Part shown: positions 17,585-62,960 of the stretch, piece by piece
Numbering within the stretch: position 1 is the first letter of the stretch
How the letters are laid out: each line of letters opens with the position of its first letter
Source: Chaetoderma sp. LZ-2023a
Taxonomy: Eukaryota; Mollusca; Caudofoveata; Chaetodermatida; Chaetodermatidae
Reading direction: 5' to 3'
Assembly (NCBI GenBank): GCA_034401795.1
Contig: CM067369.1
Location: 187,882,742-187,946,741 of the forward strand
Length of the DNA: 64,000 nt
Position numbers and translations under genes: made by a program
The notes under the pieces: model-generated
What the model was told of the DNA's origin: nothing
Database searches by the model: none
Seen by the model: the letters and a program-made list of their open reading frames with translations, nothing else

Positions 17585-20500
17585 TGTAGTTCGGATAGAC
17601 CGGTCAGGTACCGGCTGTACCAGCTAAGCTGGGTATGCGCCGCCCATCCTGGATTCGTTCCCTGAACACGCCCCCTGGGTAGAGCTATAAGCGTATATGA
17701 GCCTATGAGAGAGATCGCGTTATAAAAAAATGACTAAGTTCGTTAAAGAGCATAGTGCGCATGCGCAGGCTTAATACTATTTTTGACAGAGTGCATAATT
17801 TACGACCAAAATAGGATGATGCTTTTAGTGTACCGGGAAGGTACAATGTAATCCTTTCTAATAACTTGTTCCCACCGAATCTGGCATTAATCAAGACCAG
17901 AACTCGATGAGCTTTCCAAATCTGTAAACCATTTCAATATCTGTTAAGAAATGGCTGAGTTATCCACGGAAACCCCCTTTTGATTATCTTCAAGGTATTG
18001 CCGTGACGTCATAACCACGTGTACGCAGAAATTCTAGAATGATCTAGAACATTCGACTGCGTTATTATTAGTTACGCGCTGATTGGCTGTTTCTCGACCG
18101 ATGATTGGTTGGAGCCTGTGCCTGTGACGTCACGAGTAGTATAAAAGGAGACAAAATCCAGAGCTCGAGCGCATACTCGGTCAGGGGCCATTTAGGTTGG
18201 ACCTGTGTCAGCTACAATCAGCAAAACAGGTATTACGCAGATCATTTTGGTCTCTGTCGGTTTCTCTCCCATAGCCAGCAGTAATCCAACCCACCGCACT
18301 AAAGCAATTTTGTATCTCCCGTTTTTGCAGGAACATTTTTGGAACTTTTGGATATTGTTCACGAATATATCAAGAACTAACTCGGAACACGAACTTGCGG
18401 TGAGGCCTTTCCTGACCTAAAAATGTGATTCTACAGATGTAGAGGCAGCGATGTTCTTTGGTGGATGACTCGCCGGATCTGCCGGCCAAGCCAAACAGTG
18501 TTTATTCAGCCATCCCCGCACTGATGTTGTGCAGGTTTATCTAAACTTTTTGACCGCAGCAAAGAAAACATTGCCTAGTACGTCTTCAGAGCTGGCTGAT
18601 GTACCCCGCACCGTTAAGCTTAGCTATGTACCGTCAACCACATTCAACAACCCCCGCTTATGATCAGGTTGTTGGCAACTTCCATCCGTGCCATTGGTGT
18701 ATGGGAACTTTCGTCATAGCAGCAATGTTTTTGTATCTCTTGATGACTACTCGATAGACATTCTATATATTGTGATTACAGTCTTGAGTTCGATCCGCTC
18801 CCATCATGGGCTGCTTGCGGGAATCCTGTTTGCGGAAACCGGCATGCAGGAACTATCCAGCTTCCAGGGAATGCATCAACTCACATCAAACCAAGGGTGA
18901 TGTATCAATTTCAGTAACACGATAGCCCAGGCTTAAGAATGGCTAACGATTATTCAAGCAACTATGCTTGACATTTTAAATATCCCGTTAATTACATCTT
19001 TGATAATTATATCATATCTGTATAGACGGTCCTGATGACTAAAAGGCACCGTAATGGTCTTAGGACCGCTAGTTATAATTTCTGTATCTGTTTATAGTTA
19101 TTCTTATTTTCTGTAAGGTATTTTTGCTAACCTCACCGTAGTAGGTTTCTCAATCTGTACTATATATATATATATATTATTCTGATCATTTCACATTGGA
19201 CTGATTGTTCTGGTTAGTGTATATATGGCAAGTGGCCATCAGTTCATATGTTTTGTTTATTTGTAGAAAAATATAGGACTGCAGTGCACGTAGGAAGCAC
19301 TATACAGCAACATTTATATATGCAGCACTTTCTCCCGCCACCAACAATTTTTCACTGAGGTCGCTGTCCGTACTGTAGCTCTGTTTATCCCGACATACTA
19401 CCGACTAAAATCCTTTTCTATTCAGCTCGATAGGATAGGCTTAATATGATTAGAGACAATCTCTTCGATAGGAGACACGTGTTGTACGCCTCTTTTCCGG
19501 TAGTTGCGATAATTTAGCCCAGCACTCCGGCAGGGTTGTGTAAGATTGGCCCACATACCTAAGGGGCCTCATATTTCTAAGTTATTGTCTCTCTTCATAT
19601 TCCACCAAGCCTTATGGCTTCTTAATTGTTTGGATGTCCCTATCCGCACCATGGACTGATCTGACCCTGGTAAACTATTGGGGTTTCTGAGTGGTGATGG
19701 CCAGGGTGTGGTGTCACATACATTTCCCGTGTATCTTCGGATACTCAGTAGTTAGTTACCTTTACCAATGTAGGAAAGCACTGCAAAAACATATCTTAAT
19801 TATTATTTTCTTTAATCTGCTGAACAATCCTCCCGCACCGCCGTGCATAACTGGGCAACTTGTGTTTAAACCTAACGCCAGGTTAAAAAGTTAGTTCCGT
19901 AGGACCTGGTGACGGGCGAGATGCACATCCCCACCGAATTCCGTAAAAATGTCTGGACATGATATTCAGATCTGCCACGCCCTCACGGGAAGAACATTTA
20001 TGGTGGTTATTCGTCTCTCACCCCACCATAACGATAGATCAGTTGCCTAAACATGCTTTTGTGAAAAGTAACCAATGTCCTATGACGTTTTATGTGGTTA
20101 CAGAGTGAGATGTCCGGATTCATATCCATTTCGGAGGTCTTGCAAAGTGACATGTATGCATGCTGTCTTCAGTATTGATGTCTTAGGGCATCCATTCTCA
20201 ATGACAGCTCTGTCTAAAGGCTAGGTAAACGCCAGCCATTAACGGCCTAAAATAATTCTTGTCTCTAAAAACTAAATATGAGGTTAGGCATAGAAGAAGG
20301 CCCGCATAAATAAAAGCAGCAACTACTGATTCAGCATACTGAGAATTACATAAGAAGGTGATGTGGAAATACTTCGGGAATCACTCATCCCGTCATCACG
20401 TAAAACAGCACGCAACCGTATAGTCATAATCTCACTAGGTATGGTCTTTTCTTTACATGTTGGTTAACTATTAGAGTGGGACCCTTTTGGCCACTACTCT

Positions 20501-21230: not shown

Positions 21231-21232
21231 AG

Positions 21233-21250: not shown

Positions 21251-21299
21251 TCGAAGAACATCATTATTAGCGCGCAGAGAACTCACGCCCACACTGTAT

Positions 21300-23075: not shown

Positions 23076-23789
23076 TCTTAGGGGCACCGATCGTAGCGTC
23101 ACCTCGGTGCCCATATCTGCTTCCCGGCTCAACTGCGGCCCCCGTATGACAATGTTCAGTGGCCATCTATTACCAACCAAATCCAACTTATACCCCTACA
23201 CCAAAATGCATGGCTTCACATATGTCGATGCCTACGATGCCTCCCCCATCCGCAGCATCGCCATCCCCCTCTATCTCCGCACATAACAAGCCTTCTTTCC
23301 TTTGTAAAACGGCAGTGGTAGGTTACAGTACCTCCGCTGAAACAACGGCACTGAATTCTCGGGAGAGACGGTTCACTCCACCTCATGGATTCGCAAACGC
23401 CGATGTAGATGGGGAGAAACACGTCCCTGGCGGCGTCACTGTTTCTTCTGTGCTTCACCAAAGCATCCAATGAAGCATTGCAAGATATGCCCCACGCAGG
23501 TAGAGCTTATACATCATCACCGTACGCACCGCTGTCTACACCAATACTGCATACCCAGAAACGGCAACATCTCCATCATCATTGCTACCCCCAGCTCTGC
23601 CTTCGCCGCGAATCTCACAGCAGCGGGGACGATGGACTGGCCCTTTCCTCACACAGCCATCCACTACATTAAAAGAAGCTATTCGCAAACAGACCGATTA
23701 TATACAGAATGATTCCACTCCGACACCATTGGCGCAGATGGTGTCATTGGAAACTGGTACACCGCAAAGTGATATACAAATGTGCCTGT

Positions 23790-24640
23790 CTGTTTAGCAG
23801 TGTTTCCACCAGTGCCAAAATTGACACTGGCGCTTCAATCACAGTATTCAACAAACGCTTATATGGGAGCATCCCACCTCATAAAAAGCCTCCCCTTAAA
23901 CCTAAACACATTTACCTACAGATGGCTACAGGAGCTGATGTGCCCGTAGCCGGTGTAGTCAATCTAGTCACCCAAATAGAGGAGATGCAATTCATACAGC
24001 GAGTTTTCATCGCCTCTATTCATAATGATGCCCTCCTTGGCTCTAATTTCCTCAGTGCCAGCGAAGCCATCATACATTGCAAACAACGGGAACTCAACAT
24101 ACACGGCCGACGAATACAACTCGGACTGGCATTGTCATTGTACGACACGTGCACTATAATATTATCAACTACAGCCCCAGTTGAGCCAGGACAAGAGCAA
24201 ATCTTGTGGGCCACCGCACTACAGTTAGGAATCAACACACACATCACCATGCTGGAACCCGACCATGATTACATGATCGCCTCTCAATGCGCAAGTCCCC
24301 GCATGATAGTAGACACCACTACTAGGGAACATATACCCTTTAGGGTGTTCCATGGTACTGCAGACCCCATCACTCTTGAACCAGGAGTACGCTGCGGCCA
24401 TTTAGTGGACATAATCTCATTGGAATCACCTACACTTACCAATACACCACAGCATATGACTGATGATTTACCCGAACACTTACATGATTTATATCTATGT
24501 GCCACAGTTGGATTACAGCAATCACAGAAACACGAAATTCGGAAACTACTGTACAAATATCGCGATAGTTTTTCCTCCGGAGACATGGATCTCAGAGAAA
24601 CTCATCTTGTACGACACTCTATCGACATAGGCAATAACCG
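23790..24640 (+). other. Giant Gypsy: aspartic protease and start of pol
   Basis: KIDTGASITVFNK (D at about 23823) is the catalytic loop of retropepsins. ALLGSNFL about 60 residues later is the second conserved strand. Residues after ~24480 (LYKYRDSFSSGDMDLRET, then HSIDIGNNRPI) are the conserved linker that precedes the RT in Ty3/Gypsy polyproteins. The RT does not follow directly because foreign sequence intervenes. Confidence 0.75.
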
Positions 24641-24644
24641 CCCC

Positions 24645-26330
24645 ATAAGCAGAGTTGTCCTTATGCATCCTTTTGCACGTATATATGCATACAAATGGCA
24701 GAGGGACGCATACAAATTAACCCTCGGCGTCCCGGAGGATGCACGAGGGACGCAGTGAAAAAGTGTAATGGAAACTTTTAACTTTGCGTGTGCTTAATTA
24801 TCAATTATATTATCGTGTGTGTATATTTATTTGTGCATGTTTTTACTTTAAAAAATATACCTAATGTATTGTGTTCAATAAAAACGAACTTACTGCGTTG
24901 TTTAAGACTATGATTTGTTGTTCTATGTTTTCTAGCACAACTCAAAGTTGTTAATGCCCATAAATCAGATTCAACCGCCACATTTAATTGTAAACACAAT
25001 CCCCAAATCATCCTTAGTATTCCATTTGATCTAATGTTTTAATATAAATAATGAGTTTACAAGCCTGATGTCAGTCGCCTTGTTTGGCCTACAAATTGCA
25101 AAAATACCCACCACGTTTCTGTCTGTTGTGCCAAACATCAGTGTGACGTGTCAGTATTTGATTGGATAACAGCGGAATCTCCCTCTAGAGGAACTCACAC
25201 TTGAGAAATCCAATACAACTGATCAAGCATATACAAACGTGTCTGGGCGTCTTAACCCTTTCACAGCTCAGAACATTGGACAGATCACAAAGTTGTTATC
25301 ACTAATCTGCTGAATATTTTGAAATTAATTTGCGCATGCCTACTTGCCTAAGGCAGCAACCACTTACATGCAAAATATTTTTTTCTATTTACTTATCAAA
25401 ATATCTAAATAGATGAAGGAATATATGGAAGATATTGTGATATCGTTTACATTTGAATGGCCATTTGACGGATTAGCGTCGGTGTCTTTGTATTGCTGTT
25501 TGAATAACGGTATCAATATGCGCTACAAGCCGTCTTTTATTTAGCAATAGCGGCTGATTGATTGACTGATGGATTAGTGTTTATAATGTTTAACAATACT
25601 CGATCGTTAGGTGTTCCCTATTTCTCAACCAAAAAGCTCATCCCAGCAACGATGTTCAACGATATCGTCGATCTACAGGTAGGCATACGTTAAAACATAG
25701 ATTTTTTCCAAACAGGGTATAGCTCAAAGCTCCCCGATACAAGCTTCCTTATTGGGTACATGCTAATGTGTTATCTATGCGTCAACCAATCAGCAATCGC
25801 GTTACATAGTTATCCCTATGAATTAGATATATCCGGTTATTGGATGATATATTTTCACTAAATACGCAGTTTAATCTGATTTATACAGATTACTTTTGAC
25901 AAATTATTGTTTTGTCTGATTTTGGCCTATGTATTCCACTAAATTTAGTCATTCCAGTTACATTATAAAAATACGCGCGCATTATATCGAAGTAGGTCAA
26001 GTTGTCCTTGAGCAAATTCGCCCCAGACACTTGTAATTTTTCAATTCGTCCAAAGTCAAGATATGGTTTAATAGAAAAACTAATGCAGTGGTCTTTGCTA
26101 ATTACTAATGTAGTGGTCTTCAGAAATGTTAATCATACAAGGTTGTCAATGTAGGATGGTTGGTTTATCAGATAACAAACAAGTACAGTGCTTTAAGTTA
26201 TTGTTTATTGACATGCAGTTCAAATGTTATCAGTGAAATATACAAGGGCCATTTCAATAGATCAATTTTAGCCGCCATTCTAGATCATAGAATACATATT
26301 TTTGAAAATTTACCACTATGCATAGTTAAT
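24645..26330. mobile_element. ~1.7 kb insertion inside the giant Gypsy, unclassified
   Basis: The pol order stops just after GNNRPI (about 24645) and resumes at GKKDGTLQFCIDY (about 26336). Between lies AT-rich sequence with an AATAAA at about 24878, a degenerate hairpin element at 25309-25381, and no coding region. I could not find clear inverted ends or a target duplication, so the class is open. About 40 residues of normal pol sequence at the junction are unaccounted for. Confidence 0.5.
25309..25381. mobile_element. Degenerate ~90-bp hairpin element
   Basis: TGAATATTTTGAAATTAATTTG on the left (19 of its bases match the family arm), a centre GCCTAAGGCAGCAAC, and a decayed right arm ending CAAAATATTT. 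It is an older member of the family. Confidence 0.5.
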
Positions 26331-26335
26331 ATTCT

Positions 26336-27365
26336 CAGGCAAAAAGGACGGAACCTTGCAGTTTTGCATCGACTACCACCGGCTTAATGATCTTAGCATC
26401 AAGGACGCTTATCCATTACCTCGGATTGATCAGGCCCTATATTCTTTGTCCGGAGCCAAGTGGTTTTGTACCCGTGACTTAGCTAGCGGTTACTGGCAAG
26501 TGGCCATGGATAAGGCTGACATGGAAAAGACCGCATTCGTTTGTAGGGATGGTCTTTTCCAATTCGGTAAGATGCCCTATGGCTTGTGCAATGCTCCCTG
26601 AATTTTGAACATCTCATTGAGCAGGTATTAACCACCCTGCAATGGGAAATCTGTCTCTTTTACATCGATGACGTAATTGTCTTCGGACCAACGTTTGAGC
26701 AAACCTTAATCAATTTGGACACTGTGCTTTCCCGATTCCAAACGCCCAATTTGAAACTCAAACCCAACAAATGTCATCTCTTTAGACAGAGTGTTGAGTT
26801 CCTGGGACACGTTATATCCGGTGATGGAGTGGCTACTCAGCCATCCAAAACTAAGGCAGTAGCGGAGTGGCCAATTCCCTCTTCAGTCACAGAGACACTG
26901 AGTTTTCTTGGCTTATGCTAGTACTATCGTCGTTATATCCAACATTTCAGCGAGATTGCTTCACCCCTCTACAAGATCACCGAAAAGGATCGACCATTCG
27001 AGTGGACGAGTGAGTGTGAAGGCTCCTTCAGGGTGCTCAAGGAACTCTTGATGACCACCCTGATTCTTGCTCATCCTAATCCAAACCTCGATTTCATCTT
27101 AGACACTGATGCGTCAGCTTACGCTATCGGTGCGGTTCTATCTCAGGTCACAGAAGACATAGGAGCAGGTATTGGGTTATGGTTCGCGTACTCTGACTAA
27201 AACGGAGAGAAAATACGCAACCACCAAGCGAGAACTATTAGCGGCGGTATATTTCATCAAGTACTATAAACACTTTCTGTACAGGCACCCATTTACACTC
27301 CGTACAGACCATGCCTCACTACGCTGTCTCAGGAACCTAAAATCCTGGAGGGCAGGAATCCCGGC
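26336..27365 (+). other. Giant Gypsy: reverse transcriptase and RNase H
   Basis: RT motifs in order: KKDGTLQFCIDYHRLN, DAYPLPRIDQAL, FCTRDLASGYWQ, FQFGKMPYGLCNAP, LFYIDDVIVFG (catalytic DD near 26665), and HVISGDGV. These are followed by PFEWTSEC and the RNase H start LDTDASAYAIGAVL (about 27100), KRELLAAVYFIKYYKHFLY and LRTDHASL. The order and motifs are those of Ty3/Gypsy. The YIDD and first RNase H acids are still readable, but the region is fossil. Confidence 0.85.
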
Positions 27366-27699
27366 AGGCCTCTAACTTCAACATTGTTCACCATCTCGGC
27401 AAATTGCATGGGAATGCCGACTTCCTCAGTAGAGTTGGCATGGAGGCTGAATACGAAGAGGCCGCCACCGTGACACAGTCAACACAGTCATCTCCGTAGT
27501 TCCCCAAATTGAGGTGCGCAGAGTGGAATCCAGAGAAAATCGCCCACCACCAAACAACAGACTGGCAGACATGAAATATATATGCATGGATCCAGGAGGG
27601 GGTACGTCCTCCAAAGGAATCGGTAACACCAGTATCCACCACGGAAAAGTATTATTACCAACGGTTCGAAGAATGTCAACTGATAAATAACATTCTTTA

Positions 27700-28720
27700 C
27701 TTCAATAACCATCTGGTAGTCCCGGAAAGTTATCGTAACCTCATATTAAAAAAAACTACATGACAACACCGAGCATCTGGCCATGGAAAGGACTGTTGCC
27801 CGTATCAAATCAAGATTCCACTGGATCAGAATTCGCGATAGTGCCAATGCATGGGTTGCCAAATGTATCCCATGCCAAAGACGCTCTGTTGGCCAGCACC
27901 ATATCGCACCATCTCAAATTAAGATTGTTGGTGCACCGTGGGAGCGAGTGGCTATTGACGTGCTCGGAAATAAATACATCCTCGTATTGCAAGACTATTT
28001 TACAAAGTGGGTAGAAGCATTTGCTTTTCCAGACCAAAAGGCATCCACTGTAGCGGAGGTCTTGGCAAGCAATATGTTCTGCCGTTTGGTATGCCTTATG
28101 ATTTGCACTCCGATCAGGGAAGTAATTTTGAGAGCCAGCTCATATCAGAGCTCTGCAAATTGCAAATGGTAGAGAGATTCAATAGAACCTTCGCGGAGAT
28201 GCTTACAAAGGAAACATGCCTTGATTGTAGAGATTGGGATCTACGGCTCCCATATGTACACATACCACACTTCAGTACATTCCAGCATGGGTTATATGCC
28301 TGCTTGGTTAACGTTAGGCCGTGAATTAGCCTTATCCCTGGATCTGGCCATGCCTCGGATACCGGGAGAGAAAAATGCACCATCTCTCTATGTCAAACTC
28401 CTGCGGCAGTGGATAGAACAAGCCCATGAGTTAGTAAGAGAAACATTATCCACTGCACACTGGTGGCAAAAGACATGGCACGACTGGAGGGTGCATGGAG
28501 ATCCATATGAAGCAGGAATGATGGTTTGGGTACATGATTCACGATGGTCTGCAAACGTGCCAAGTAAACTGAGTTACCAGTGGAAAGGCCCCTATGTGTT
28601 AGTAAGCAAACATCGGACGTGACCTACCGTATCCGTTCTTCGGATGGCCTGACCTCAGTCATCCACTTCGATCGACTTAAACCATTTGTCAGTGATGACC
28701 CAGCACCAGAGTTCGGACTG
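27700..28720 (+). other. Giant Gypsy: integrase
   Basis: It has a zinc-binding front (H..H then CIPCQRRSVG), then the catalytic fold (WERVAIDVLG, LQDYFTKWVEAFAF), MVERFNRTFAEML, and a C-terminal segment with MMVWVHDSR and YQWKGPYVLV resembling the GPY/F domain. HFDRLKPF near 28670 is the usual polyprotein end motif. No chromodomain is visible. The enzyme would insert the DNA copy. Fossil, broken. Confidence 0.8.
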
Positions 28721-28724
28721 GGCG

Positions 28725-31700
28725 TTTCTCGTGACACTGGTACCCAGACAGATATTTCTATGGAAAATAGTGTTCCCACGGTTAGTACAGAGCACTGCAG
28801 TGCCAGTTCAACCCCGCTTCTACCAAGCCAGAATGCGGGTGAACAAGCGGCTAATGCTGACGACGATGATGAGATATGTAATCGCCCTCTCCCTCCTCAG
28901 CACTGGTCTACTCGATCTGGGAAGCCGTATCTAAAGAACTTTGTGTTTGTTTTGTCCAAGGGACCGGATGGAAAAGCTGTTCCCCCAATCTCTTCCCATT
29001 CCCACCCACTTCATGCTATGCACCCCCCATCATAGAGTTGCCATAAATGGAAGCTGAGGCTGACCCAAGCCATGCTTCCCGTGGGGTGGAACATATGATG
29101 AATAGCATGGAAGTGAAGAGGCTAGATGAAGCCCTGGCGTATCTAAAACCGCAAAACCGTACAACGAGGTGTACCAGACCACTTTCCAAAAACGCGAAAC
29201 CACGCCCCTCCCAAGTGACACCCTTTTCCATAGTCCCACCACCGCCATCACTCCAATTCGCGTCCCTCATCTATACACCAAGTTCGGACATCACGGGCCC
29301 AGTCCATTTCACACTCCACTCATCGTCTGTTGACCGTCAATCTTCAGATATGAGAGAGACTATTGCTACAGAGGAGGGGGCATTCCGCACCGCACCAAGC
29401 AACATTACCCCCCCCCCCCACCCCACCCCACCCCCACCCCACCCCACCCCCGCGGTGGCCAGGGAAGCAGCCTGTTCAGCAGACTCTCGGCTCGAATTCT
29501 CCCAGGGTCTAAAAACTATGACAGGACACCAACCGTCATGTAACAGGAGATGACCACATCCCCCTGACCAAAGGCCACCCCATCCATTTGGCCTACCATA
29601 CTCCCCCGTGAGCAGTCAGGACATCACACCACAGACAGAACGTCATCACATACATAACACACATGCCCTCAAGGCTGGATGCATCAATTCATCATTGCGT
29701 GTATATCACATACATACTCGGTTATACTCAGCATAACAGAGACATTCAACACCGCAATGACATCATTTAGCAGCACCTACCGGTATTAATTAATTTCTGG
29801 TAGAGACATAAAAACTCCTGCGACAGTTCCACCTGCACAGGATGTGGGAGAAATAATATCTACCGCAAACCCCCACCTCCCACAATAACAACAGACTCGG
29901 TGTTCACCAGCCGGGAAAACTGGAATGCATCCACTTCGCTTTAACATTGGCATCATACAGCAGCCCAGACATCCCGACAACAATATTATCGTCAACAAAC
30001 AACAGCCAACAAATCTCCTGCACACACCTTCTTATCTAGTTAGGGGAGAACTGATCATATGGATATAAGGACTGCACTACAGCCATCTACAGTATGCATC
30101 ACGGGAGGAACGTTTGTCCAATGTTCCTCCCCTTCCCTCTCCCACGACATCAAATGGAAACAGCCAAAATCTACACATACATCATTTACACGTAATAACA
30201 GTCGATATTATTAAGAGAGCAAGATGCCTGCATTGTTGTCAGTCACAATGGCTTGGCCATTACGGAGCGAAATACCCTCAATGTTCGATAAAGTTGATAT
30301 CACGCCACGTCCCCCATTCCCGCACCTGACATAGTCACTCAGGTTGAAAGTATTCACAATCTCCAAACGACGGCATTGTAAATTGTAACACTGTGTGAAC
30401 CCACTTCCGAGTTGTACTGTAGTTTAACCGTTATTAAATGGTATTAATGTGTCCGGTCTAGGCAGGGATGGAGATAATTCTACCCATTGAGGAGAATGTT
30501 TGGCAGCCCTCCCGCTCGGAAAATGCAGCTATCTTGTCAGGATCAGTAACATTGATCTACTGCCTGAATAGATCTGTTTAAACCACACATCAAATTACTT
30601 TACTGTTATATTTTTGATTAAGAACACAACTGCTCTACCGTGCTACAAATCATTAGTGCACGGGCTGGTAAAGCGGCATAAAAAATCTAACAGTTTAATT
30701 ACAAGGAGAATTTCACAAATTCTCTTCGCTGCATTCCAGTCAATAAGCAACAAGGGCTGAGAACTACCTTTACAGACAACTATAAGACACATGTTTAAGA
30801 ACCTGCACAAATAGGGACCTTATGATAAAACAAAATCTTGGTATAACATATATATATTTCCATATCTCGCATCAACAAAAGACTACACCTCAGCAACAGT
30901 ATCTCGGCCATCGCTGTGAACAGCACATATGTTTCCGACCATGTTTCCAAGGGCCATGTGACTTTTACTGCTATTTTCATTAAATTGGATCAAACGCTTT
31001 AAACCAAAGAGCCGCCAAAATATGCGACTACCACGGCGTGATGGAGGAGTAACAAGGGTGAGTCAGGGTAATTACTGCTGATGTCACCAGTCTCTCACAC
31101 ACTCCATCGGGTGCTGTCGCCTAAAATTAAAATAGGCAAGTTTATAAGCATCCAATCGGTAAAACCACATCATTCTAATTAAAAGGTGATGCTTCTCGGG
31201 AATAAGTAGTACCCTGTTTTTATGTTGATCGGAAAGGTTTAAATGCGCTAAAATAAGACTAAGTTAGTGAGCCTTTCCTCTTATAATTAAATGTACTCCC
31301 TTTACATGGGAAGACTTAATCCAGTGACGATCCGAATGGAAAAAGGAGAAACTTTCCATATAGGGCTGACCGAATCACCTGTCAAAACTTCCAGGTGTAG
31401 TCATCTGCCATCTATGATGCCACCAAATGGTATAAAAGGAGGAAGCACGGTCTGAAACTTCGTCTTCCCGTCAAAACTCGACACCAGGGAAGAACAGATA
31501 GCATTAGGCTTCTTTCGTGTCAAAAATTAAATTCTGCTGTTCTTTATTATTAGTTCATTATTACAATACCTGGCCTGGAAAGTTAAAAATGAAGAGATAA
31601 GGCTTTAGGTTTTAAATAAGGTTCCAGCAGCCAACTACCATGCAGGAACGAGATGTCACTCCTCGAAGATTTAGCATTGTCGGATTCGTCTGAAGAAGAA

Positions 31701-42732: not shown

Positions 42733-44583
42733 TCAACAATCATCATTCAACTGAAACCGGAAGTCATTTTCTTTGTCACAGTTTAGGGACCGAAAAAGAA
42801 ATACTAGTTTAGCCGCTTTTAAAGTTCCAAGTTTGTTTCTCAACTTACTCTGCACGAGCCCATAGCTGGAGAACACGCGCTCGACACCAGCTGACGCCGC
42901 CACAGCTGACATCAGACGCTGAGTGAATTCAAATGCTTCCAGCAGATCATCCTCGAAGTCACGTCTGTGCGACTTCCACCAATGAAGAGAGGTTACTCCA
43001 TTAACAACTTCGTCGTTAAATTTAAGAATGTGAAATGGTGGTGCCATGGCCTCGAATTTGATTACCAAAGTCATCAAACCAGGGATTTCGGATGCTACGG
43101 TGAGTGCAGTTTCACGTTCTTGCTGAGTCAAGTTTCGACCACGGTATTTAGGGTGGAGTAGATTGGCCAGCATGTGGTGAGGTGTCACAGCTTGTTGATA
43201 ACGCTTATCGGCCGCACGCTTTGTTGAATTATTAGTGTCATTATGCAGGGCCGTTTTTACATCTTTCCATAATTCAACTTCTTCTGCTATTGTGCAATTG
43301 TCCGATTGAGCTTTATCGAGAGCGCAAGCTACTGGTTTCAAACAAAGTCGGTATTCATCTGCAGAACGTTTGATTACTACATTACGAACTTTATTGGCAA
43401 TGGCAACATCTATGCGGTCAGTATGTCCATCACAGATTGTCACAAGTGTCGGCCATGCCTCACAATACGAGTTTAAACAATCGTACATTGTGTTCCACCT
43501 TGTATCTGCTGGCATCACTAACTTTCTGCACGATGATTGGCGTATTTGGGCACTAGCAAAGTGGTTATTTCGGAAATACTTCACAACTTGTGTGACATGC
43601 TCCTTAACATTACCCATTTCTAAGTCCTTTGAAGTCAGATTTAGAAGATGAGGCGTGCATCCATACGCAATCATGTTGAAACCCAGTCGTTCTTTCAAGA
43701 ACTCTCGCATCTTTGCTACATTAGCAGCATTGTCTGTGACGATACTACATATAATGCACCCAAAATCATTGTGCGTGTTTTCAATTGTCTGCTTCGCAAT
43801 GTCATAAAAATATTCCGCTGTGTGAGGATGTCCAGAGGTGTCCGTAGTATCCACTAAGTAAATATCACCTAAGCAGGTCGTCACTGTAGCACATACGATA
43901 GGCTCGTTATGAATATTGCTCCAACCGTCTAATGCTAGACAGACAAGTTCACCTTCCAAATTTTTTCTCGCCTTCTCCCGCTCTTCTGTGTAGATAACAT
44001 CCAAATATTTCCCCCCTATGTCCTTTCTGGATGGTGGTTGATAGCCTGGTCGTAAATCTTTTACAAGGTTTATAAAATGTCTATTTTCTACTAAGCGAAA
44101 TGGGGAGTTCGTAGCATACACCATCCTAGCTACATCACGATCTAATTCACCACGTTTTTCTGCTGAAGTTCTGATGACATAATTCTGTAGACCATAATTC
44201 AGCTTGGGTATCTTAGCGGCCAATGTACCAGCAGCTAATTGACCGTGCACTGGGCGCTTCACTGCCGCTGAAGCAGAACTTGAAGTTGACAGAGGTTCAA
44301 CTTCCATCACCACCACATCGTTTTGATCAACAACAGTTTCAACGCGCTGCTGCTGCTCAGATTGAGATGAAGTCCCCGTTTCTGTTGCGGCTACAGCTAG
44401 ACCTTGAAGTGCTGGTGTTGGTGGACCTGTGCAATTGGCTGCATGTTTTTTTAACCGGTCTGGGATACCTTGGAGTTCGTGTCGGCAGACCTTGCAGACA
44501 GCCCGGACACCGGCCTTATCTGGGGTCTTCACTTTCTCATAATGAATCCATATTGGATCTTGTTTTCGGCCGGAGTTAGACAT
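42733..44583 (-). CDS. hAT transposase with BED zinc finger, 616 aa
   Basis: A complete uninterrupted frame from Met (44583) to stop. Residues 10-51 are a BED finger (W12, C30-x2-C33, H47-x3-C51) that binds the element ends. 60-110 is a low-complexity linker. The RNase H-like catalytic core shows D219 in ALDGWSN, D284 in VTDNAANV, the C309-x2-H312 motif of GCTPH, and TRWNT at 361-365. LLHPKYRG (475-482) follows the insertion domain. The C-terminal hAT dimerisation region carries E568 in GVERVFS and SKLRNKL. All three catalytic acids are present. The length is normal for hAT-Ac/ZBED-like transposases. It acts in the nucleus by cutting out and reinserting the element. The frame is intronless. 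Domesticated ZBED genes look similar, but the matched TIRs and target duplication show this one is still in its element. Confidence 0.95.
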   Translation of the reverse strand: MSNSGRKQDPIWIHYEKVKTPDKAGVRAVCKVCRHELQGIPDRLKKHAANCTGPPTPALQGLAVAATETGTSSQSEQQQRVETVVDQNDVVVMEVEPLSTSSSASAAVKRPVHGQLAAGTLAAKIPKLNYGLQNYVIRTSAEKRGELDRDVARMVYATNSPFRLVENRHFINLVKDLRPGYQPPSRKDIGGKYLDVIYTEEREKARKNLEGELVCLALDGWSNIHNEPIVCATVTTCLGDIYLVDTTDTSGHPHTAEYFYDIAKQTIENTHNDFGCIICSIVTDNAANVAKMREFLKERLGFNMIAYGCTPHLLNLTSKDLEMGNVKEHVTQVVKYFRNNHFASAQIRQSSCRKLVMPADTRWNTMYDCLNSYCEAWPTLVTICDGHTDRIDVAIANKVRNVVIKRSADEYRLCLKPVACALDKAQSDNCTIAEEVELWKDVKTALHNDTNNSTKRAADKRYQQAVTPHHMLANLLHPKYRGRNLTQQERETALTVASEIPGLMTLVIKFEAMAPPFHILKFNDEVVNGVTSLHWWKSHRRDFEDDLLEAFEFTQRLMSAVAASAGVERVFSSYGLVQSKLRNKLGTLKAAKLVFLFRSLNCDKENDFRFQLNDDC

Positions 44584-44682
44584 TTTGCTAATTATGGAAT
44601 TGAAAATATTTCATAGCCTTTGTCACTTAAGCAGTTTTGACTGTATTTTTCAAGAATGAAAAAATGCTTTTCTATTGCATCA

Positions 44683-49132: not shown

Positions 49133-49384
49133 TTTACCTGTGCAGTCTTTTGGAAATTGATAGGCAGGGTGTTCAGAGATCGATCAATGCCAACACGAGC
49201 AAGGTGTAGGTGGAGCTTAGCTAGAGATGGGCGGGGCATAGCTAAAACCCGGAAACGTCCATTGGATGGAAAGTTACTGTTCCGAGCTAGCAAAGAAGAT
49301 ATCCATCCTTCGCCAAACGACTACCAAGAACTACTTCAGCGCCGGAGAACAGACACTACATCTAGATATCCAGCTGCTAGATCG

Positions 49385-50464
49385 TGAGCCAGACAATCTA
49401 TCTTTCACTCCCTGCAGGAGACAAATGCTCCCGCCCATGTATCATCGTCGCGATCGTGAGCCAGACAATCTATCTTTCGCTCCCTGCAGGAGACAAACAC
49501 TCCCGCCCATGCGTCATCGTCGCGATTGTGAGCCAGACAATCTATCTTTCACTCCATGCAGGAGACAAACGCTCCCGCCCATGTACCATCGTCGCGATCG
49601 TGAGCCAGACAATCTATCTTTCGCTCCCTGCAGGAGACAAACACTCCCGCCCATGTGTCATCGTCGCGATTGTGAGCCAGACAATCTATCTTTCACTCCA
49701 TGCAGGAGACAAACGCTCTCGCCCATGTGTCATCGTCACGATCGTGAGCCAGACAATCTATCTTTCACTCCCTGCAGGAGACAAACACTCCCGCCCATGT
49801 GTCATCGTCACGATCGTGAGCCAGACAATCTATCTTTCGCTCCCTGCAGGAGACAAACACTCCCGCCCATGTGTCATCGTCACGATTGTGAGCCAGACAA
49901 TCTATCTTTCGCTCCCTGCAGGGGACAAACACTCCCGCCCATGTGTCATCGTCACGATTGTGAGCCAGACAATCTATCTTTCGCTCCCTGCAGGAGACAA
50001 ACACTCCCACCCATGTATCATCGTCACGATCGTGAGCCAGACAATCTATCTTTCACTCCATGCAGGAGACAAACACTCCCGCCCATGTATCATCGTCACG
50101 ATCGTGAGCCAGACAATCTATCTTTCGCTCCCTGCATGAGACAAACGCTCCCGCCCATGTATCATCGTCACGATCGTGAGCCAGACAATCTATCTTTCGC
50201 TCCCTGCAGGAGACAAACACTCCCGCCCATGTGTCATCGTCACGATTGTGAGCCAGACAATCTATCTTTCACTCCATGCAGGAGACAAACACTCCCGCCC
50301 ATGTGTCATCGTCACGATCGTGAGCCAGACAATCTATCTTTCACTCCCTGCAGGAGACAAACACTCCCGCCCATGTATCATCGTCGCGATCGTGAACCAG
50401 GCAATCTATCGTTCGCTCCCCGCAGGAGACAAACGCTCCCACATATGTATCATCGTCGCGATAA
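49385..50464. repeat. 72-bp minisatellite, 15 units
   Basis: The mark GTGAGCCAGACAATCTATCT starts at 49385 and recurs every 72 bases to 50321; the last unit (50393) is altered. Units have no indels. Most differences are at CpG sites (CG against TG or CA). Because 72 is divisible by three, several frames on both strands stay open, including one of 479 codons (49266-50705). I do not count these as genes. Confidence 0.95.
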
Positions 50465-55325: not shown

Positions 55326-55525
55326 ATGCGCCACTCTATCGCAACGGACATCTTCAGCCCATATTAAATACTATGATATCAAAGCTGCTATGCTTCAGAT
55401 TTTAATAGCTTTCCAATGGTTATTATAGTCCTGGCCCTGCCATAGAGGCCCGTATACATTTCCGAGGGCATAGACTTTGATTGTTGATTTGAGTATGGGA
55501 TGTCGCTAGATTCAAGATTGCACTA

Positions 55526-56222
55526 GGTGGAATTCTGAAATTTGTAGCATAAGCGGGGAAAACGGCAATTGTTTTTCAAAATGGCCGCCACACGGCCAGT
55601 GCCAAACAAGAAACGCATATAACTTTTGATAGGAACGTTGTATGTGGATGATTTTGGTGTCTATTATGGGGTTTTCAGGTATGCTCGACAAAATGGTGTT
55701 GTTAGTAAACATTTTTGACATCGCCCAGTTACCGAAATCCAAGATAGCCGCCACGTGAAATCCGTCAATCATGAAAATGTGTATAACTTTTGATAGTAAC
55801 ATAGTAGATGAATGGTTTTGGTGTCTTTTGTTGGGGTTTCAGGTATGCCCGACACGAAAACACCATTAGTACATATATTTAACATAGTCCAGCTATCGAA
55901 ATCCAAGATGACCGTCACCCCAAGCCCATCAATCATGAAAATGTGTATAACTTTTGTTATGAACATAGTAGATGGCTGATTGTGTTGTCTTTTGTGGGAT
56001 TTTCAAGTATGTCTGACGTGCTACTATTGGTTATTGGCTCAGTATTGAAGCTAGACGTATCCCATGCTAAAATCAAGTGTCAAAATTTGAATCGACAGAA
56101 AGACAGATAGACAGATAGACAGACAGACAGACAGCTAAGCAGGCAGGCACAATTGCAAAAAATCTTGTTTTGTTTTTTTACTTTGACACATATTGTGTGT
56201 TTCAGGTGGTGGAATTCTGAAA
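55526..56222 (+). repeat. ~165-bp tandem repeat between copies of a 15-bp sequence
   Basis: Three diverged units (landmark TATAACTTTTG at 55617, 55784 and 55947), each with a CCAAGATGGCCGCCA-like motif and GGTGTCT...GGGGTTTTCAGGTATG. The whole is bracketed by GGTGGAATTCTGAAA at 55526-55540 and 56208-56222. An (ACAG)n run lies at about 56097-56140. It ends 17 bases before the start of the CXC-family gene. Confidence 0.7.
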
Positions 56223-56289
56223 GGTGAAATCTGAAAACATGGCAGACAGAAAGGGGAAAAGGAGGACTCGACCTCCTGATTACAAAACC

Positions 56290-56880
56290 TTCTCCAGCTT
56301 CTGTTTACCGTGACAGATGTATTATTTGTCAAAAGAAAGGAAAAAACTCAGAACCGCTCTGTGGTGGACCGACAGGTAGAAAACGTGTCCATGATGTAGC
56401 GCAAGTTAAAGCTGACGATGTTAACAAACAATTGAGAATTCTGGGTCCTGATTCTGACTTCAAATACCACAATACATATTCTTGCTATAAGAAATACACA
56501 GATGTACGAAACCTTCCGACCATTTCTGATGAACCTGCTGCAGATGAGGCGACAAAAGTAATACTATCTGACTCAAACACTCACAAATCATCCACAGGCA
56601 GCTGCTGCATGCCTCGATCTGGACCCAGCACTACTGTTGACTCAAAATATATAGACTGTGTAATATGTGCATGTGATAGGGTCTGGGTCAAACTAAAGGG
56701 ACAACAGATGCGGGAAAAGTTTGGACTGTAAGATCAAAAGTGCACAGAAGTTTTTAGATGCAATTCAATATCATAAAGATGGTGTGCATGTCAGATGTGC
56801 AGATATAGGCACTCCTGAGGATGTCTATGCCGCTGATTTATATTGCCATGTGTCTTGTTTCAAACAATATGATCTCGTTT
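56290..56880 (+). pseudogene. N-terminal paired zinc-binding modules of the CXC/PIN gene
   Basis: Module 1: RDRCIICQKKG (C-x2-C), then about 55 residues later KYHNTYSCYKKYTD, giving a C-x2-C...H-x4-C arrangement. Module 2: IDCVICACDRVW (C-x2-C), then FLDAIQYHKDGVHVRCADIG and ADLYCHVSCFKQY. The two modules repeat the same layout (CxxC, helix, acidic turn, H-x-x-C-Y), so they look like an internal duplication. Zinc and nucleic-acid binding are inferred from the cysteine/histidine spacing only. Frame 2 until 56731, then frame 3. Confidence 0.65.
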
Positions 56881-56889
56881 AGATCCGCT

Positions 56890-59580
56890 CATTCAGGCTG
56901 GGTATGGGGTTACAATAACGGAAATCAGGGGGATGATGATGAACATTAATGAAAGTACCGTGGTATATAATCGAGATGTGAAGACATTTCTTATAGACTA
57001 CTATGGCAATAAAATTCAATTCTTTCCAAGTCATATGGTTAATGACCCTGAAATGTGATTCTCAGCAGATATAAGTATAGAGGACCTCAGTAGAAAACTC
57101 CGTAATAAAGGTGTCGTTAGGTCCGCTGGAGAAATCCTCAGAGAAGCTTTCCAGCTAGTAGATTTCCAACTCGCTGATCGATTTTGTGATGGCAATGAAT
57201 TAAAAGAGTCGTGGGAAAACACTCCTATGCCAGACCAGGTACTTACATTCTTTGCGGCTCTGTTCAGTATTAGACGATCACGCATGTCAAAGATTGAAAT
57301 ATTTGAGATGGTGAATGGTGATAGTGATGCTGACGAGGTCAATGGTGACGGTGACACTAGTCCAGACGACAATACCCTAGCGGTTGAGTGGGCTGTCCGC
57401 AATCAGCACAACCAGCTGAACTGCCTCTTTCAAATTATATACAATCAACTATTTCATGATGCAAAGAAGACCCCCTGAGTGCCTCATTTTGCCAGTGTCA
57501 ATATAGGAAGGGCCGTAGCCATGAGATTCTGACAGCGGCAAACCATATGGCCATCAGTTCCAGCTATAATGATGTAAGGAGATCCAGACTGTTGCTCGCT
57601 GCCTACGCCATCGCCAAGTCGAAGGGAAATGAGGTCCCTGTTCCAAGCAGTTTCACTCATGACGCATACACGTTTGGGGCCATGGATAAGGGCGATTTCT
57701 GTGATAGGTCATCTATCTCCGGCACCGAATCCGATCATGCGACAATGCAAGTGCTATATCAGGATATTATCTCCCTCCCAGAGTCAAAACCTCGAGTGTC
57801 AGAAATGAAGTTGCAGAAGAGCACTGCGTGCTTTCCTCAGAAACTACCATATCAAGAAGTGCCCCATCACCATAAACCATTGGTAAAACCATCCCTTCCA
57901 CCCAATTTTCAAGGTTATATAGGAACCTGGTATCCATTCTAATCTCGATTGTGTGTCTGCCCTCCGTATAGCAGATAAGCGTGAGTTTCTTATTTCCTTC
58001 ATCAGGTGTGGCCTACCGAAGTATACTTGTGGTACTCTGCCTACCTGGGGTGGTTTGCATGCTCTATTATCTACTGCAAACGCACCTCTTTTGCGTGTGA
58101 GATTTATGCCTGTGATTCCCTCCCCTGTGACCAACTACGCTACTGTACATAAGGGCCTTCAAAACTTCCAGAGTGTCCGTCGGCAACTTACCCCATCTCA
58201 GTCTCTCATAGCAGTATTCTGTGATGAGGGTGTGTTTCATACTATAGCCGATATCATGATCGCTGAGCCAAACACATTCTCTGATGTGCATGGCATGATG
58301 GGGATGTTTCACTGGGTCAAAATTCTGTTGAATTGTGCCGGCCATTATCTCCGGGGGTCGGGCATTGAGGATGCTCTCATTGAGACGGAAGTGTTTGGTA
58401 AGCTGACCTTGAAGGCAGTCATTTTGTTCGTTCATTCCATGGAATAATGATGGTTTCAGATCTGATCGGCTCATTGACGTGGGAAGCGTTCTGGCAGTGG
58501 TTGGAGCAGCATGACCGCAAGATCAATGATGATATGATGCCTGTGTGGTCAAAGTGCAGAAGTCTCTATGTGAGAAGAAGCAGGCGGTCGAGAAGTTTTC
58601 AGAGCTTGTTGATCAATCTTCAGAGCTTCAAAAACCAATTTGATTGCTTCCTCAACGAGTGCTGTGCGAAGTCTGAGATGTGCCAATACTTGCAAGAGTT
58701 TCAACGAATAGCTGTCAACATTAAGCACGATGTTGCCTCAGATCGAGAGGGAAATTTCCCTCTACATATAGCCTCTGTAGAAACATCTCTCCTAATCTTC
58801 CGGGAGAGCGACTGTATCAATTACTTCCGCTATGGTTCATTCTATCTGGAATCTACAAAGGTCCTAGAGGCAACTCATCCCGAGATCGTTCAGCACTTCA
58901 TGTGTGGTCAGTTCGTCGTGAAGGATCATGCTGATAGTTATTTTAATGCTATTGCGGCAGATATGAAGCTGGAACAATCGATACAGGGGTCATCAAAGAG
59001 TGGTAGTGGGATTGTGGGCCAAACAAGAAATCTAGCGATCATGGTTGAGTGGCAGCTCATATTCCACGAAATTCTTCTTGTCTCGAACAACTTCAGGGAG
59101 ATGATAAATGAAGTCTCAGTGAATCACAGCGAATCCACAAAAGTTCATCATGAACTCACTGATCGCAAAGCGGATCAGCTTAATGCTAATGTGGCGAGAT
59201 GTTTGGACTTCGTCAGAGATAGAATCAATCCTTACATCATCGAGGCCCTGGACATCAAGCTCTACAACCTCATCAACACGCAGCTGGCAGATAATGAAGT
59301 GACAGTGCGGCTGCTTCAGGTGCAATTAAGTGGAGATCGATTGGTCAGAGAATTCCGAAAGTAGCGGTTTCTTGAGAAGACCAAGCGACTCTCTGTCACT
59401 ATATCAAAAAGAAATATACTGCAAATGGACTACAAACCACCATCTGAGACCAGCATATCTCATGTTACTGTATCACCTAAGATGATAGCGGCAGCTCAGC
59501 GTGACATTGAGATCGTGAAAGAGCAGGACATGACACTGAACTCTATTTATGTCAATGAAATTCTCCCTATTTAGATACTA
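56890..59580 (+). pseudogene. Central region of the CXC/PIN gene
   Basis: Well-preserved segments: IQAGYGVTITEIRGMM with VFNRDVK-like VYNRDVKTFL; PLSASF...ISSSYNDVRRSRLLLAAYAI; PSSFTHDAYTFGAMDKGDF; PTWGGLHALLS; NTFSDVHGMMGMFHWVKILLNCAGHYLRGSGIEDALIE; REGNFPLHIASVETSLLIFRESDCINYFRYGSFYLE; ATHPEIVQHFMCGQFVVK. The conserved G-x-FH-x8-G-x3-GSGIED and NYxRYG blocks are the marks by which I recognise the family. No catalytic motif is obvious, and the role is unknown. Confidence 0.65.
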
Positions 59581-60346
59581 TTTGAAGGTGACCTCCCCTC
59601 CAAATCTAACAAGAGCACACTGATTGCCGAACTGGAGACGTATTTAACAGATGGAGGCATGCATTTTCGGGGGGGGGGGGGAAGGGGGGAGGGAGTTATC
59701 CGTTATCTTAGACTTCATGTCGAAAATTCGGTCATTTCCAAACTTATCATCCGTTGTAACGTTTGATCATGCAATTAGCGATGGTCTATCTGCGGGCCTC
59801 TCAATTTGCTCAAGGACCAGCCTCCACATCATTTTCAACAGCTACCTGGAGTCGTCCATTAAGGCTGGGGAAATGCTCCATCGCACTGGAGGAGTTGGGT
59901 CTGTTGACAAGTTCTGGACGTCACCGACCAATAAGACTAAGTTACAGTGGCTTGTCCGTTAGCTGGCACCGAGTCCTGAGCTCATCAACTTGAGCGGATG
60001 CATCACAGATGAGGAAGTTGTGCCAGCGCATTGCTCCATGCAGAGAGGTCGCCAGCTGCTGAAACCGTAGAATCTATTGAAGGGCTGACATGTCGTGCAG
60101 GCTTGGGTACAAGTGCAAATGCATTTGCATTTGCATTTGAATGCATTTGCACTTCCATTTGCATTTAACAGCATTTAAGAAATTTCTGACGCATTTGCAT
60201 TTGCTCTTGCATTTGAATCTCATGTATGCAATTGCAAATGCATAAAAAGGGTTGCATTTGCATTTGAGTTTTCAAATGCATTTGAGTTTTTTTCAAAGGC
60301 ACTACTTTTTTCATTTTGCATTTCTTTCAAAATAGGATGGAGCCTA

Positions 60347-60373
<27 letters not shown>

Positions 60374-60378
<5 letters not shown>

Positions 60379-60424
60379 AAATAGCAGTCATAGCGCCCAG
60401 TCAAATTAATTTCAAAATATTCAA
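60374..60424. mobile_element. Half copy of the palindromic hairpin element
   Basis: Only the right arm is good (GCGCCCAGTCAAATTAATTT then CAAAATATTCAAC). The left arm position is occupied by the (GCT)n run, whose phase fits the family's GCTGTTGCTGC centre, so the microsatellite may have grown from it. Confidence 0.6.
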
Positions 60425-60750
60425 CCAAATTGTTTGTCAAATCATAAAAAAATGGCATTTCTGTTTCTAGAAATTAGAAATTTAATTCTCTGTCATTTAT
60501 TAACACATTTTACTCTGAATTTCTTAACATGTAGCTCTCAGCGATAAATATACATAAATATGTGTGCAAAATCATGTATATATTGATATTAGTCTAGTTT
60601 AAGTCAGTTGGGATCTTAACAGACGAACAAATTTTAGTTAATTTGTTTCTGAGATAATCTACAGCAATGCATCTGTAGAGTATAGAAAATATGATCACCT
60701 AAATAGTAAGGAATGGGTGCCTCCATTCTCTTGTCCAATGTATTGACCCT

Positions 60751-60876
60751 TTAACCCGTACATACAAAACCACAGAAATCATTGGCTCAGTGATCCTCTT
60801 CTCTCGGTCTGCAAATGGGCATTTGTAAAGACCATGACAAAGGCTGGTCTTTCTGGTTTGTGAATAAAAGGGTTAA
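60751..60876. mobile_element. piggyBac-like MITE, 126 bp
   Basis: TTAACCC at 60751 and GGGTTAA ending at 60876. Imperfect inverted ends (CATACAAAACCACAGAAA against ATTCACAAACCAGAAAGA). An inner CTGCAAATGGGCATTT is shared with the next copy. Confidence 0.65.
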
Positions 60877-61161
60877 TAAAACAATTCAACTAAACGTTGT
60901 TGCTGCGTCAATCAATATGTCGAGTTTCAGGAAAATTAATAATATAAATACAATCATCTGTTTTAAAGAACCGCAATCTTGTGGCCCCGAAATACAGGTG
61001 GTCAGTAGAGCACTTTTGACTACAATCTGTTCAACAAGTACTTGCTGTATTTTTTGTCAAGATCCTTTTAAAGTAATTAGCGTGAGCTTAGTAATATATC
61101 TCTGGTTGCTCAATCTATGAATAGAGTATTGTGTTGTTAACTCCATTCATTCAGAAATGTC

Positions 61162-61365
61162 TTAACCCTTTATAAATTTGTCAAGATTGGCCTTTTGAAT
61201 GTCCATTTGCACCACAAGAGAAGACAATTTTTGAAAATTTATGACTGATATGACTGGCTTGGTAATCGAGTCAGTTATTCCAGTGGTTAATCTTCAAAGA
61301 TTATCTTCTTGGAATGCAAATGGACATTTACCAAGATCAATAAATAATAGATGCTGATGGGTTAA
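61162..61365. mobile_element. piggyBac-like MITE, 204 bp
   Basis: TTAACCC at 61162 and GGGTTAA ending at 61365. The inverted inner arms AATGTCCATTTGCA / TGCAAATGGACATT are perfect. Contains the CCAGTGGTTAAT motif seen at 4910 and 13369 in the other orientation. Confidence 0.7.
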
Positions 61366-61512
61366 TTTACTAATCACCCATTGTGATTAGAAGCACTTGT
61401 CATTCAGTCTAATTATACACACGTACTCAGTCATGTGTTATCTCAGCCATAGGAATTAGCATTTAAATATTTGAATCCGGAAATGCGAAAATCTTAATTC
61501 AGGTATTGAGCA

Positions 61513-61652
61513 AGCTGATAAATATTTTGAAACAAATTTGATTGGAAACCTTTGACAGCTGTATTTTGAATGTAATTTAACTGGAACCTGTTGCTGCCAT
61601 AGGCACAACAGCAGCTATCAATCAAATTACTTTCCAGATATTCAATATTAAA
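61513..61652. mobile_element. Expanded, diverged hairpin element copy
   Basis: Two left-arm-like pieces (AATATTTTGAAACAAATTTG and ATTTTGAATGTAATTTAACT) before the CTGTTGCTGCCATAGGCA centre, and one right arm (ATCAAATTACTTTCCAGATA). The left arm seems to have been duplicated. Confidence 0.55.
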
Positions 61653-61689
61653 TTTGATAATTATTTTGCAAACATTTGCATTTGCATTT

Positions 61690-62040
61690 AAATGCAATAC
61701 GCTTCACTTGTGTGGAAGAAGCAGATGATAGCCTAGTTCCCCATTGTGCATGGGAGGTGAATCGTGGCAGTATTCGGCTGCTCGTGATATCCAATGGCAC
61801 ACACACAATAACATGTCTTCTTCGCTTTATCCCTCAATTGCGAGAGCGCGGTCTTCAAGAGCTGTGGGTAGAATGTGGCTCTGGTGAGCATATGCATATT
61901 GTTGCAGATAAGTTGGGAATAGGATTATGCAGAGTCATAGTGACGGCGCGTGTGCTCACCGGCGATGATGCGCTCAATAAGATTGGCACAAAGCATGCGT
62001 CTCTCTCCTGTGAGCCATAGAAGTTCATAGCCGGATTTGC
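61690..62040 (+). pseudogene. PIN/FEN-like acidic core of the CXC/PIN gene
   Basis: RFTCVEEADD is the family's HEEADTR box. About 20 residues on, RLLVISNGTHTITCLLRF stands where active members have DTDV, so the second acidic pair is lost here. ELWVECGSGEHMH and then VLTGDDALNKIGTKHA match the family's LTGCDTTSKVGTK, with the acidic pair kept. The spacing E-A-D / D-T-D / G-C-D resembles the metal-binding acids of PIN and FEN-type nucleases, so I infer a nuclease ancestry. The frame is open for ~114 codons to 62020. Confidence 0.6.
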
Positions 62041-62159
62041 AGAGTTGCAGCAGTTAACTGACGAGGTCGTGAAGAAGGGTGAAAAGTTCGTGTGTGGGTT
62101 GATGTGAAGATCAAGTCCGAATCTCGGACCTTCGATCAGCTTCGAGTGACGCATCATAT

Positions 62160-62481
62160 TACAGCTACGACGTCGAAGCCCTTGGAAGCCCTACACCCAC
62201 ACACCTCCACCCCCACCCCCTTCAAGTGTCATTCGTTGCCATATCCAGATAGCTTTTTTGTTGTGCGTAACGCCCTCTGCCTTCTTGATTACCCCCATTC
62301 GACTAGAGATCCCACTGACTACGGCTGGGTGATGGATAATTACATCCTATTGCCTGCAAAAGGTCTCAATCTCCTACCACATGAGAAGCTTGTCATATGT
62401 AAATGCATGGGAAAGTGTGACACAAAACGCTGCCCATGCAAAAAGGCAGAGCTCAGCCGTGTGCTCTTTTGTCACAAATAA
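62160..62481 (+). pseudogene. C-terminal segment with CXC cysteine domain
   Basis: PYPDSFFVVRNALCLLDYPHSTRDPTDYGW (family: HIQRAYYQ...W...P.P..YGW), then LPAKGLNLLPHEKLVICKCMGKCDTKRCPCKKAEL. The C-x-C-x3-C-x4-C-x-C pattern is the start of a CXC/tesmin-like zinc domain. The later cysteines are reduced to one (LFCHK) before the stop. An expanded Pro/Thr tract (PHTSTPTP) lies at 62200. Confidence 0.65.
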
Positions 62482-62960
62482 CACGAATCAGGGTGTCAAA
62501 ATAAGTAGTCAACCTGTTAGGTCAATGACGTCATGACCATCATGGGTAGTGTGAATAAGTCAGTAGTCGTCAGAAAGCTTTGCTGTTTATCCAATGTTGG
62601 GATGGGGCTTGATAATAAAAAGATTGGGTTAGCGTGTCTTGTCACTCTCCATGTCTGAAATCAAATCCATGCCATGGCTGGCGACCGTTCCATCTGTGTT
62701 GTGTAATATTACTCAGACTTTTTCTCTCAATATCAAACTTTTACTTAAACATATTTGAAGGTAATGAGTTAAGCAATTTGTCATCATTCTCATTATTATT
62801 GTCGTTGTCGTTATTAGAAATTATTGTCAAGATTCATATTAGACCTCAATAAATAGGGTGCCATGACGCTATAAAAGTGTGCGTGCATCTGATTGGGGTG
62901 GGGGTGGCGTAGACACCACAATCACCAGTTTAGGTTATAAATAGTTAGCGACGTATGGAC
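62482..62960. other. No gene seen
   Basis: Spacer after the CXC/PIN gene, with a CRE-like TGACGTCA at 62526 and no polyadenylation tail. Chance frames only. Confidence 0.5.

What the first reader, a model, noticed from the sequence alone, without database searches (positions are those of the whole stretch)
56239..62481. Nearly full-length member of an uncharacterised zinc/PIN-like/CXC gene family
The sequence shows, in order, two CxxC...HxxCY modules, a long central region with GSGIED and NYxRYG blocks, an EEAD...LTGxD acidic core, and a CXC cysteine domain, all without introns. Such proteins occur in many copies in marine invertebrates and, to my knowledge, have no assigned function. The acidic triad spacing suggests a PIN/FEN-type nuclease fused to sequence-specific zinc domains. 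That could be a mobile element's own enzyme or a nucleic-acid defence factor.
Basis: partly seen in the sequence, partly recalled or inferred. Interest (0 to 1): 0.85.

Follow-up and report, generated by a model that had tools for sequence, protein, structure and literature searches.

The report
Dead copy of a nuclease-carrying transposon
This stretch is a decayed copy of a jumping gene whose intact sisters elsewhere in the same genome encode one large protein that looks like a cut-and-paste transposase joined to a flap-nuclease-like domain, so it is most likely a new member of a known transposon group rather than a host gene or defence factor.

Summary
The motifs are real, but they belong to a DNA transposon. 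The window copy runs from a left terminal inverted repeat at 55426 to about 62853. It is broken by frame changes, stops and a 1.6-kb repeat insertion; its right end was not found.

The same 2.44-Gb genome holds 13 nearly identical relatives (12 compared: median divergence 0.18%), mostly about 7.3 kb, with long inverted repeats (TAGTCC...GGACTA) and 3-bp target duplications in 13 of 13. Seven of 13 keep an uninterrupted ORF of about 1,605 aa. A second subfamily (46-47% identical protein) has 3-bp duplications in 15 of 18 measured copies. One insertion of 12 tested has a matching empty site, in the window.

Predicted structures suggest two enzymes in one protein. The centre resembles P element, Hermes, Transib and RAG1 transposases, with an invariant D509/D690/E944 triad. 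The C-terminal part resembles EXO1/FEN1/XPG, with the FEN-type acids conserved.

A nuclease plus 3-bp duplications fits AcademX as described in print; membership by sequence could not be tested. Verdict: new member of a known kind.

The parts
55426..55953 (+). left terminal inverted repeat of the window copy, beginning TAGTCCTGGCCCTG; overlaps subterminal tandem units of 164 bp (55618-56011)
   Evidence: 79% identical over 530 columns to the left end of the intact element (E 1-525) and inversely similar to its right end; tandem units
56239..62527 (+). remnant of the single ~1,605-codon transposase gene, disrupted by frame changes, stops and a nested insertion
   Evidence: start codon; intact homologue P0012
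56318..56491 (+). first Cys/His module (CxxC...HxxxxC)
   Evidence: motif positions; C28 and C31 in 16 of 17, H78 and C83 in 17 of 17 rows with letters
56657..56861 (+). second Cys/His module (CxxC...HxxC)
   Evidence: motif positions; C140, C143, H204, C207 in 18 of 18 rows with letters
57676..57699 (+). first strand of the RNase H-like transposase core with the first catalytic Asp (D509 of P0012)
   Evidence: D509 in 20 of 20 rows with letters; strand 77-83 of the model
58217..58237 (+). end of the fourth strand of the core with the second catalytic Asp (D690)
   Evidence: D690 in 22 of 22 rows
58286..58977 (+). fifth strand, helical insertion (GSGIED and NYFRYG blocks) and the helix with the catalytic Glu (E944, in MKLEQ)
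   Evidence: insertion resembling P element, Hermes and RAG1; start inferred from the FHWVKIL position
59708..61972 (+). acid boxes of the FEN/XPG-type nuclease domain: LDFMSK, xFxSY, EEAD, SNxTxT, LTGDD; split by the nested insertion; two boxes altered in this copy
60095..61714 (.). nested insertion of a repeat without a long ORF, later than the gene
   Evidence: site uninterrupted in 12 of 12 young copies; main matches at other scored places 84-90% identical
62398..62478 (+). C-terminal cysteine (CXC) tail
   Evidence: eight cysteines in 18 of 18 or 18 of 19 rows with letters
62656..62853 (+). last recognisable 3' part of the element (E 6138-6351 of 7302); right inverted repeat not found beyond this point
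17891..18189 (+). repeat that serves as the empty (pre-insertion) site for the copy at L020, with a single AAT at the join
   Evidence: 264 of 299 identical without gaps to the joined flanks of L020

Best explanation
The feature is a dead copy of an autonomous cut-and-paste DNA transposon of the AcademX type. The intact element is about 7.3 kb, has inverted repeats of about 515 nt starting TAGTCC, makes 3-bp target duplications and encodes one protein of about 1,605 aa. Proposed working: the Cys/His modules and/or the 8-Cys tail bind the ends (inferred). The P/hAT/RAG-like DDE domain (D509, D690, E944) nicks the ends and joins the freed 3' ends to a target with a 3-bp stagger (fold by prediction, triad by conservation, 3-bp duplication observed; chemistry inferred). 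The C-terminal FEN/EXO1-like domain cuts a branched or flapped strand, most likely the non-transferred 5' strand at the element ends or the 5' flap left after joining (fold by prediction, acids by conservation; role inferred). Host repair fills the gaps, giving the duplication.
Confidence: 0.83

Rival explanations
1. A separate DDE superfamily, not Academ, that independently carries a FEN-type nuclease; at least some DUF6589 proteins would belong to it.
For: Distant relative P0033 (22% identity to P0012 in alignment A1) matches DUF6589 just under its cut-off (26.1 against 27 bits); the match maps to P0012 699-947, inside the transposase core, and P0033 keeps the residues of both sites. Zator also makes 3-bp duplications (PMC10045372, passage), so duplication length alone does not decide.
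Against: Nuclease plus 3 or 4 bp duplication is the combination reported for AcademX. Academ is reported as expanded in bivalves (PMC10294476, passages), but the host of this window is unknown.
Confidence: 0.17
2. The nuclease works after integration: it trims 5' flaps or resolves branched joints, so transposition may be partly replicative. This differs from the best explanation only in the step at which the nuclease acts.
For: EXO1/FEN1-like fold; that such enzymes act on 5' flaps and ends is general knowledge.
Against: Nothing here separates cutting at excision from trimming after joining.
Confidence: 0.35
3. The protein is a host gene or a nucleic-acid defence factor.
For: Multi-domain protein with zinc-type modules and a nuclease-like fold.
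Against: It sits between inverted repeats in many near-identical copies with target duplications and an empty site, and is predicted to be fused to a DDE transposase.
Confidence: 0.03

Closest known systems
AcademX lineage of the Academ superfamily of DNA transposons
   Same: Nuclease-bearing element with 3 or 4 bp target duplications (PMC10045372, passage); Academ is listed among DDD/E superfamilies (PMC9587614, passage)
   Different: Sequence relation not tested. Elements here are about 7.3 kb; 100 curated bivalve Academ consensus elements have a mean of 5,565 bp (PMC10294476, passage). That the AcademX nuclease is of XPG type is recalled, not read (PMC7165386 is not held)
AcademH
   Same: Same superfamily in print
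   Different: Helicase instead of nuclease and 9 or 10 bp duplications; neither is seen here
P element, hAT (Hermes), Transib and RAG1 transposases
   Same: Predicted RNase H-like core with a large helical insertion before the Glu
   Different: No fused FEN-type domain, and duplications of 5-8 bp (both recalled); here 3 bp
FEN1/EXO1/XPG/GEN1 5' nucleases
   Different: 10-17% identity in the listed rows, no profile match found; joined to a transposase
DUF6589 (PF20231)
   Same: Relative P0033 matches it, under the cut-off, at the position of the transposase core
   Different: The intact protein of this family does not match the model

Membership tests
AcademX DNA transposon | target duplication of 3 or 4 bp | tested here: met
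   13 of 13 young copies and 15 of 18 second-subfamily copies have 3 bp
AcademX DNA transposon | encodes a nuclease besides the transposase | tested here: met
   met at the level of predicted fold and conserved acids; no activity tested
AcademX DNA transposon | DDD/E transposase | tested here: met
   predicted fold resembling P, Hermes, Transib and RAG1, and invariant D/D/E
AcademX DNA transposon | transposase sequence groups with Academ references | not testable with these tools
   no Academ sequence at hand; two source papers not held
AcademH | helicase and 9 or 10 bp duplications | tested here: not met
   duplications are 3 bp; no helicase match in Pfam
FEN/XPG-type PIN nuclease | fold of the 5' nuclease family | tested here: met
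FEN/XPG-type PIN nuclease | acid clusters plus Lys and Arg of the arch | tested here: met
   D1185, D1227, K1235, E1238, R1242 in 22 of 22; E1337, E1338, D1340 in 21 of 21; D1364, D1366, D1426 in 20 of 20 rows with letters
FEN/XPG-type PIN nuclease | sequence profile match | tested here: not met
   no XPG model in the Pfam scan at E <= 10; hhalign to one FEN1 sequence negative
hAT / P superfamilies | 8-bp target duplication (recalled) | tested here: not met
   3 bp
single-copy host gene | one intron-bearing orthologue | tested here: not met
   many uninterrupted copies with common ends

The most novel reading that the evidence does not exclude
These elements use two different metal-dependent active sites in one protein for cut-and-paste: an RNase H-like DDE site for the transferred strand and a FEN-type site for the non-transferred strand. 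That would replace the hairpin or second-nick steps of hAT, RAG and P. The DUF6589 proteins would be cores of the same kind of transposase.
Probability: 0.33. Interest if true: 0.72.

Novelty: new member of a known kind. Interest (0 to 1): 0.45.

Why it matters
The intact protein has no Pfam match, although a protein search of this genome gave 13,413 first-look candidates (only 29 scored, so the true number is unknown); such copies can swell counts of uncharacterised genes. Near-identical uninterrupted copies make it a good starting point for asking what a FEN-type nuclease does inside a DDE transposase. PMC10045372 (passage) links the accessory enzyme to duplication length in Academ, so that question is directly testable. 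It also suggests that DUF6589 may be a piece of a DDE transposase core.

Tried and rejected
Rejected: an intron reading of the 1.6-kb gap. Rejected as far as tested: a viral origin; one scan of viral contigs with alignment A1 gave 24 pattern matches and no relative. Led nowhere: Pfam and PDB sequence searches of window pieces and of the intact protein; Rfam on the window (0 matches at gathering threshold); hhalign against the genome's own FEN1; Foldseek alone on the central model. PDB families not listed by VIA-align are not excluded. Nine paper searches were made; DUF6589 and Academ with XPG as whole words gave 0 papers. In the listings and passages I saw, none describes the two folds of this protein; I read no paper whole, and most subscription papers are not in the library. 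Passages were also looked at in PMC10799480, PMC11071193, PMC9004415 and PMC4455052 and gave nothing on the protein. A paper opened by a guessed DOI was the wrong one. A family search for PF20231 in the genome did not complete, so the number of DUF6589 copies is unknown. Of 21 full left ends listed for the second subfamily (40 of 133 candidates scored), 18 had a listed right end and were measured; three were left out. One search gives an open frame of 1,611 for pieces of L023, but its own frame holds 11 stops, so I count it as broken. An earlier count said 12 of 13 intact second-subfamily copies; a recount gives 13 of 14.

Full report
Check of the observation. The ATG at 56239 aligns with the start codon of the intact element. 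The gene is not open in this copy: pieces lie in changing frames with stops, and a 1.6-kb stretch (about 60095-61714) interrupts it. That stretch is a repeat (40 candidates scored, the window's own included, of 5,935 in the first look), not an intron, and the site is uninterrupted in 12 of 12 young copies checked. The element's left end lies upstream of the reported coordinates, at 55426; homology ends at 62853, and no right inverted repeat was found after it.

What the element is. A 401-base probe from the window has 29 matches in the same 2.44-Gb genome. I fetched 20 copies with flanks. Thirteen of them (L011-L023) form a young subfamily; 12 aligned copies have a median pairwise divergence of 0.18% (66 pairs). 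They share exact ends (TAGTCC...GGACTA). In L012 the inverted repeats are 515 nt at 99% identity, with further subterminal repeats. Twelve copies are 6.6-7.3 kb, 11 of them 7.2-7.3 kb; L014 is longer because of an insertion. The 12 copies whose two ends were in the first fetch all have a 3-bp duplication, and so has L014. An end search finds 13 left and 13 right ends of this subfamily. Seven of 13 have an ORF of 1,607-1,611 codons from stop to stop; six do not.

A second subfamily, 46-47% identical in protein, is listed with 14 copies, of which 13 have no stop inside the match. Its left ends also start TAGTCC, and 15 of 18 copies with both ends located have 3-bp duplications. The three exceptions: one (L032/L033) has a left flank shared with L034 and a right flank shared with L065, as recombination or misassembly would give; two (L058/L059, L066/L067) show no 3-bp duplication. 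For one insertion of 12 tested (L020) the joined flanks match window 17891-18189 without a gap, 264 of 299 identical, with one copy of the AAT: a pre-insertion site in a paralogous repeat. The other 11 gave no match across the join in the DNA at hand, which is a small part of the genome.

The protein. The intact protein (P0012) has no meaningful Pfam match. A protein search found 21 relatives (only the 7,989 candidates sharing most words were scored), 20 of them 40-69% identical and one distant (P0033). In the alignment of 22 the candidate transposase triad D509, D690, E944 is present in 20 of 20, 22 of 22 and 22 of 22 rows with letters. The FEN-type positions D1185, D1227, K1235, E1238 and R1242 are in 22 of 22; E1337, E1338 and D1340 in 21 of 21; D1364, D1366 and D1426 in 20 of 20. 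The two N-terminal Cys/His modules and eight C-terminal cysteines are conserved in all or all but one of the rows with letters. The equation of these positions with human FEN1 residues is recalled.

Mechanism. The DDE domain is most likely the strand-transfer enzyme. The FEN/EXO1-like domain most likely cuts the other strand at the ends, or trims flaps after joining. The ends, the duplications, the empty site and the conserved residues are observed; the folds are predicted; the chemistry and the role of the nuclease are inferred.

Comparison with the known. PMC10045372 (passages seen) says that AcademX makes 3 or 4 bp and AcademH 9 or 10 bp duplications, and that the difference seems related to the nuclease and helicase they encode. 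The present element fits AcademX on duplication, nuclease and transposase. Sequence grouping with Academ could not be tested; two source papers are not held. PMC10294476 (passages) reports Academ as expanded in bivalves; the organism of this window is not known to me. A distant relative, P0033, has a DUF6589 match just under the cut-off that maps onto the transposase core, so that family may be transposase-derived. In the window copy two nuclease boxes are altered and the gene is broken, so this copy is not expected to make a working enzyme.

Noticed in passing
window 42733-44610, - strand: Uninterrupted 625-aa ORF with DUF659 and hAT dimerisation matches just under their cut-offs: looks like a hAT-type transposase.
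   Followed up: partly
window 6784-9766, + strand: PHD-like finger and endonuclease pieces (both under their cut-offs) and a clear reverse transcriptase match, in order: a LINE-type retrotransposon remnant.
   Followed up: partly
window 11685-15682 and 21132-29553, + strand: Pieces that look like LTR-retrotransposon genes (integrase-type match under its cut-off at 14534, integrase zinc domain at 27750); described only.
   Followed up: no
window 60095-61714: The repeat nested in the transposase remnant has TTTGCA-rich edges and 5,935 first-look candidates in the genome, 40 scored; its class was not worked out.
   Followed up: partly
L021 and L022, flanks of the element: By eye, the DNA into which these two copies inserted seems to encode other distant relatives of the same transposase kind (joined flanks printed); not tested.
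   Followed up: no
L032/L033 against L034 and L065: A second-subfamily copy on a small contig has the left flank of one insertion and the right flank of another, as ectopic recombination or misassembly would give.
   Followed up: no
window 49380-50462: Fifteen copies of a 72-bp tandem repeat lying in a long open frame.
   Followed up: no
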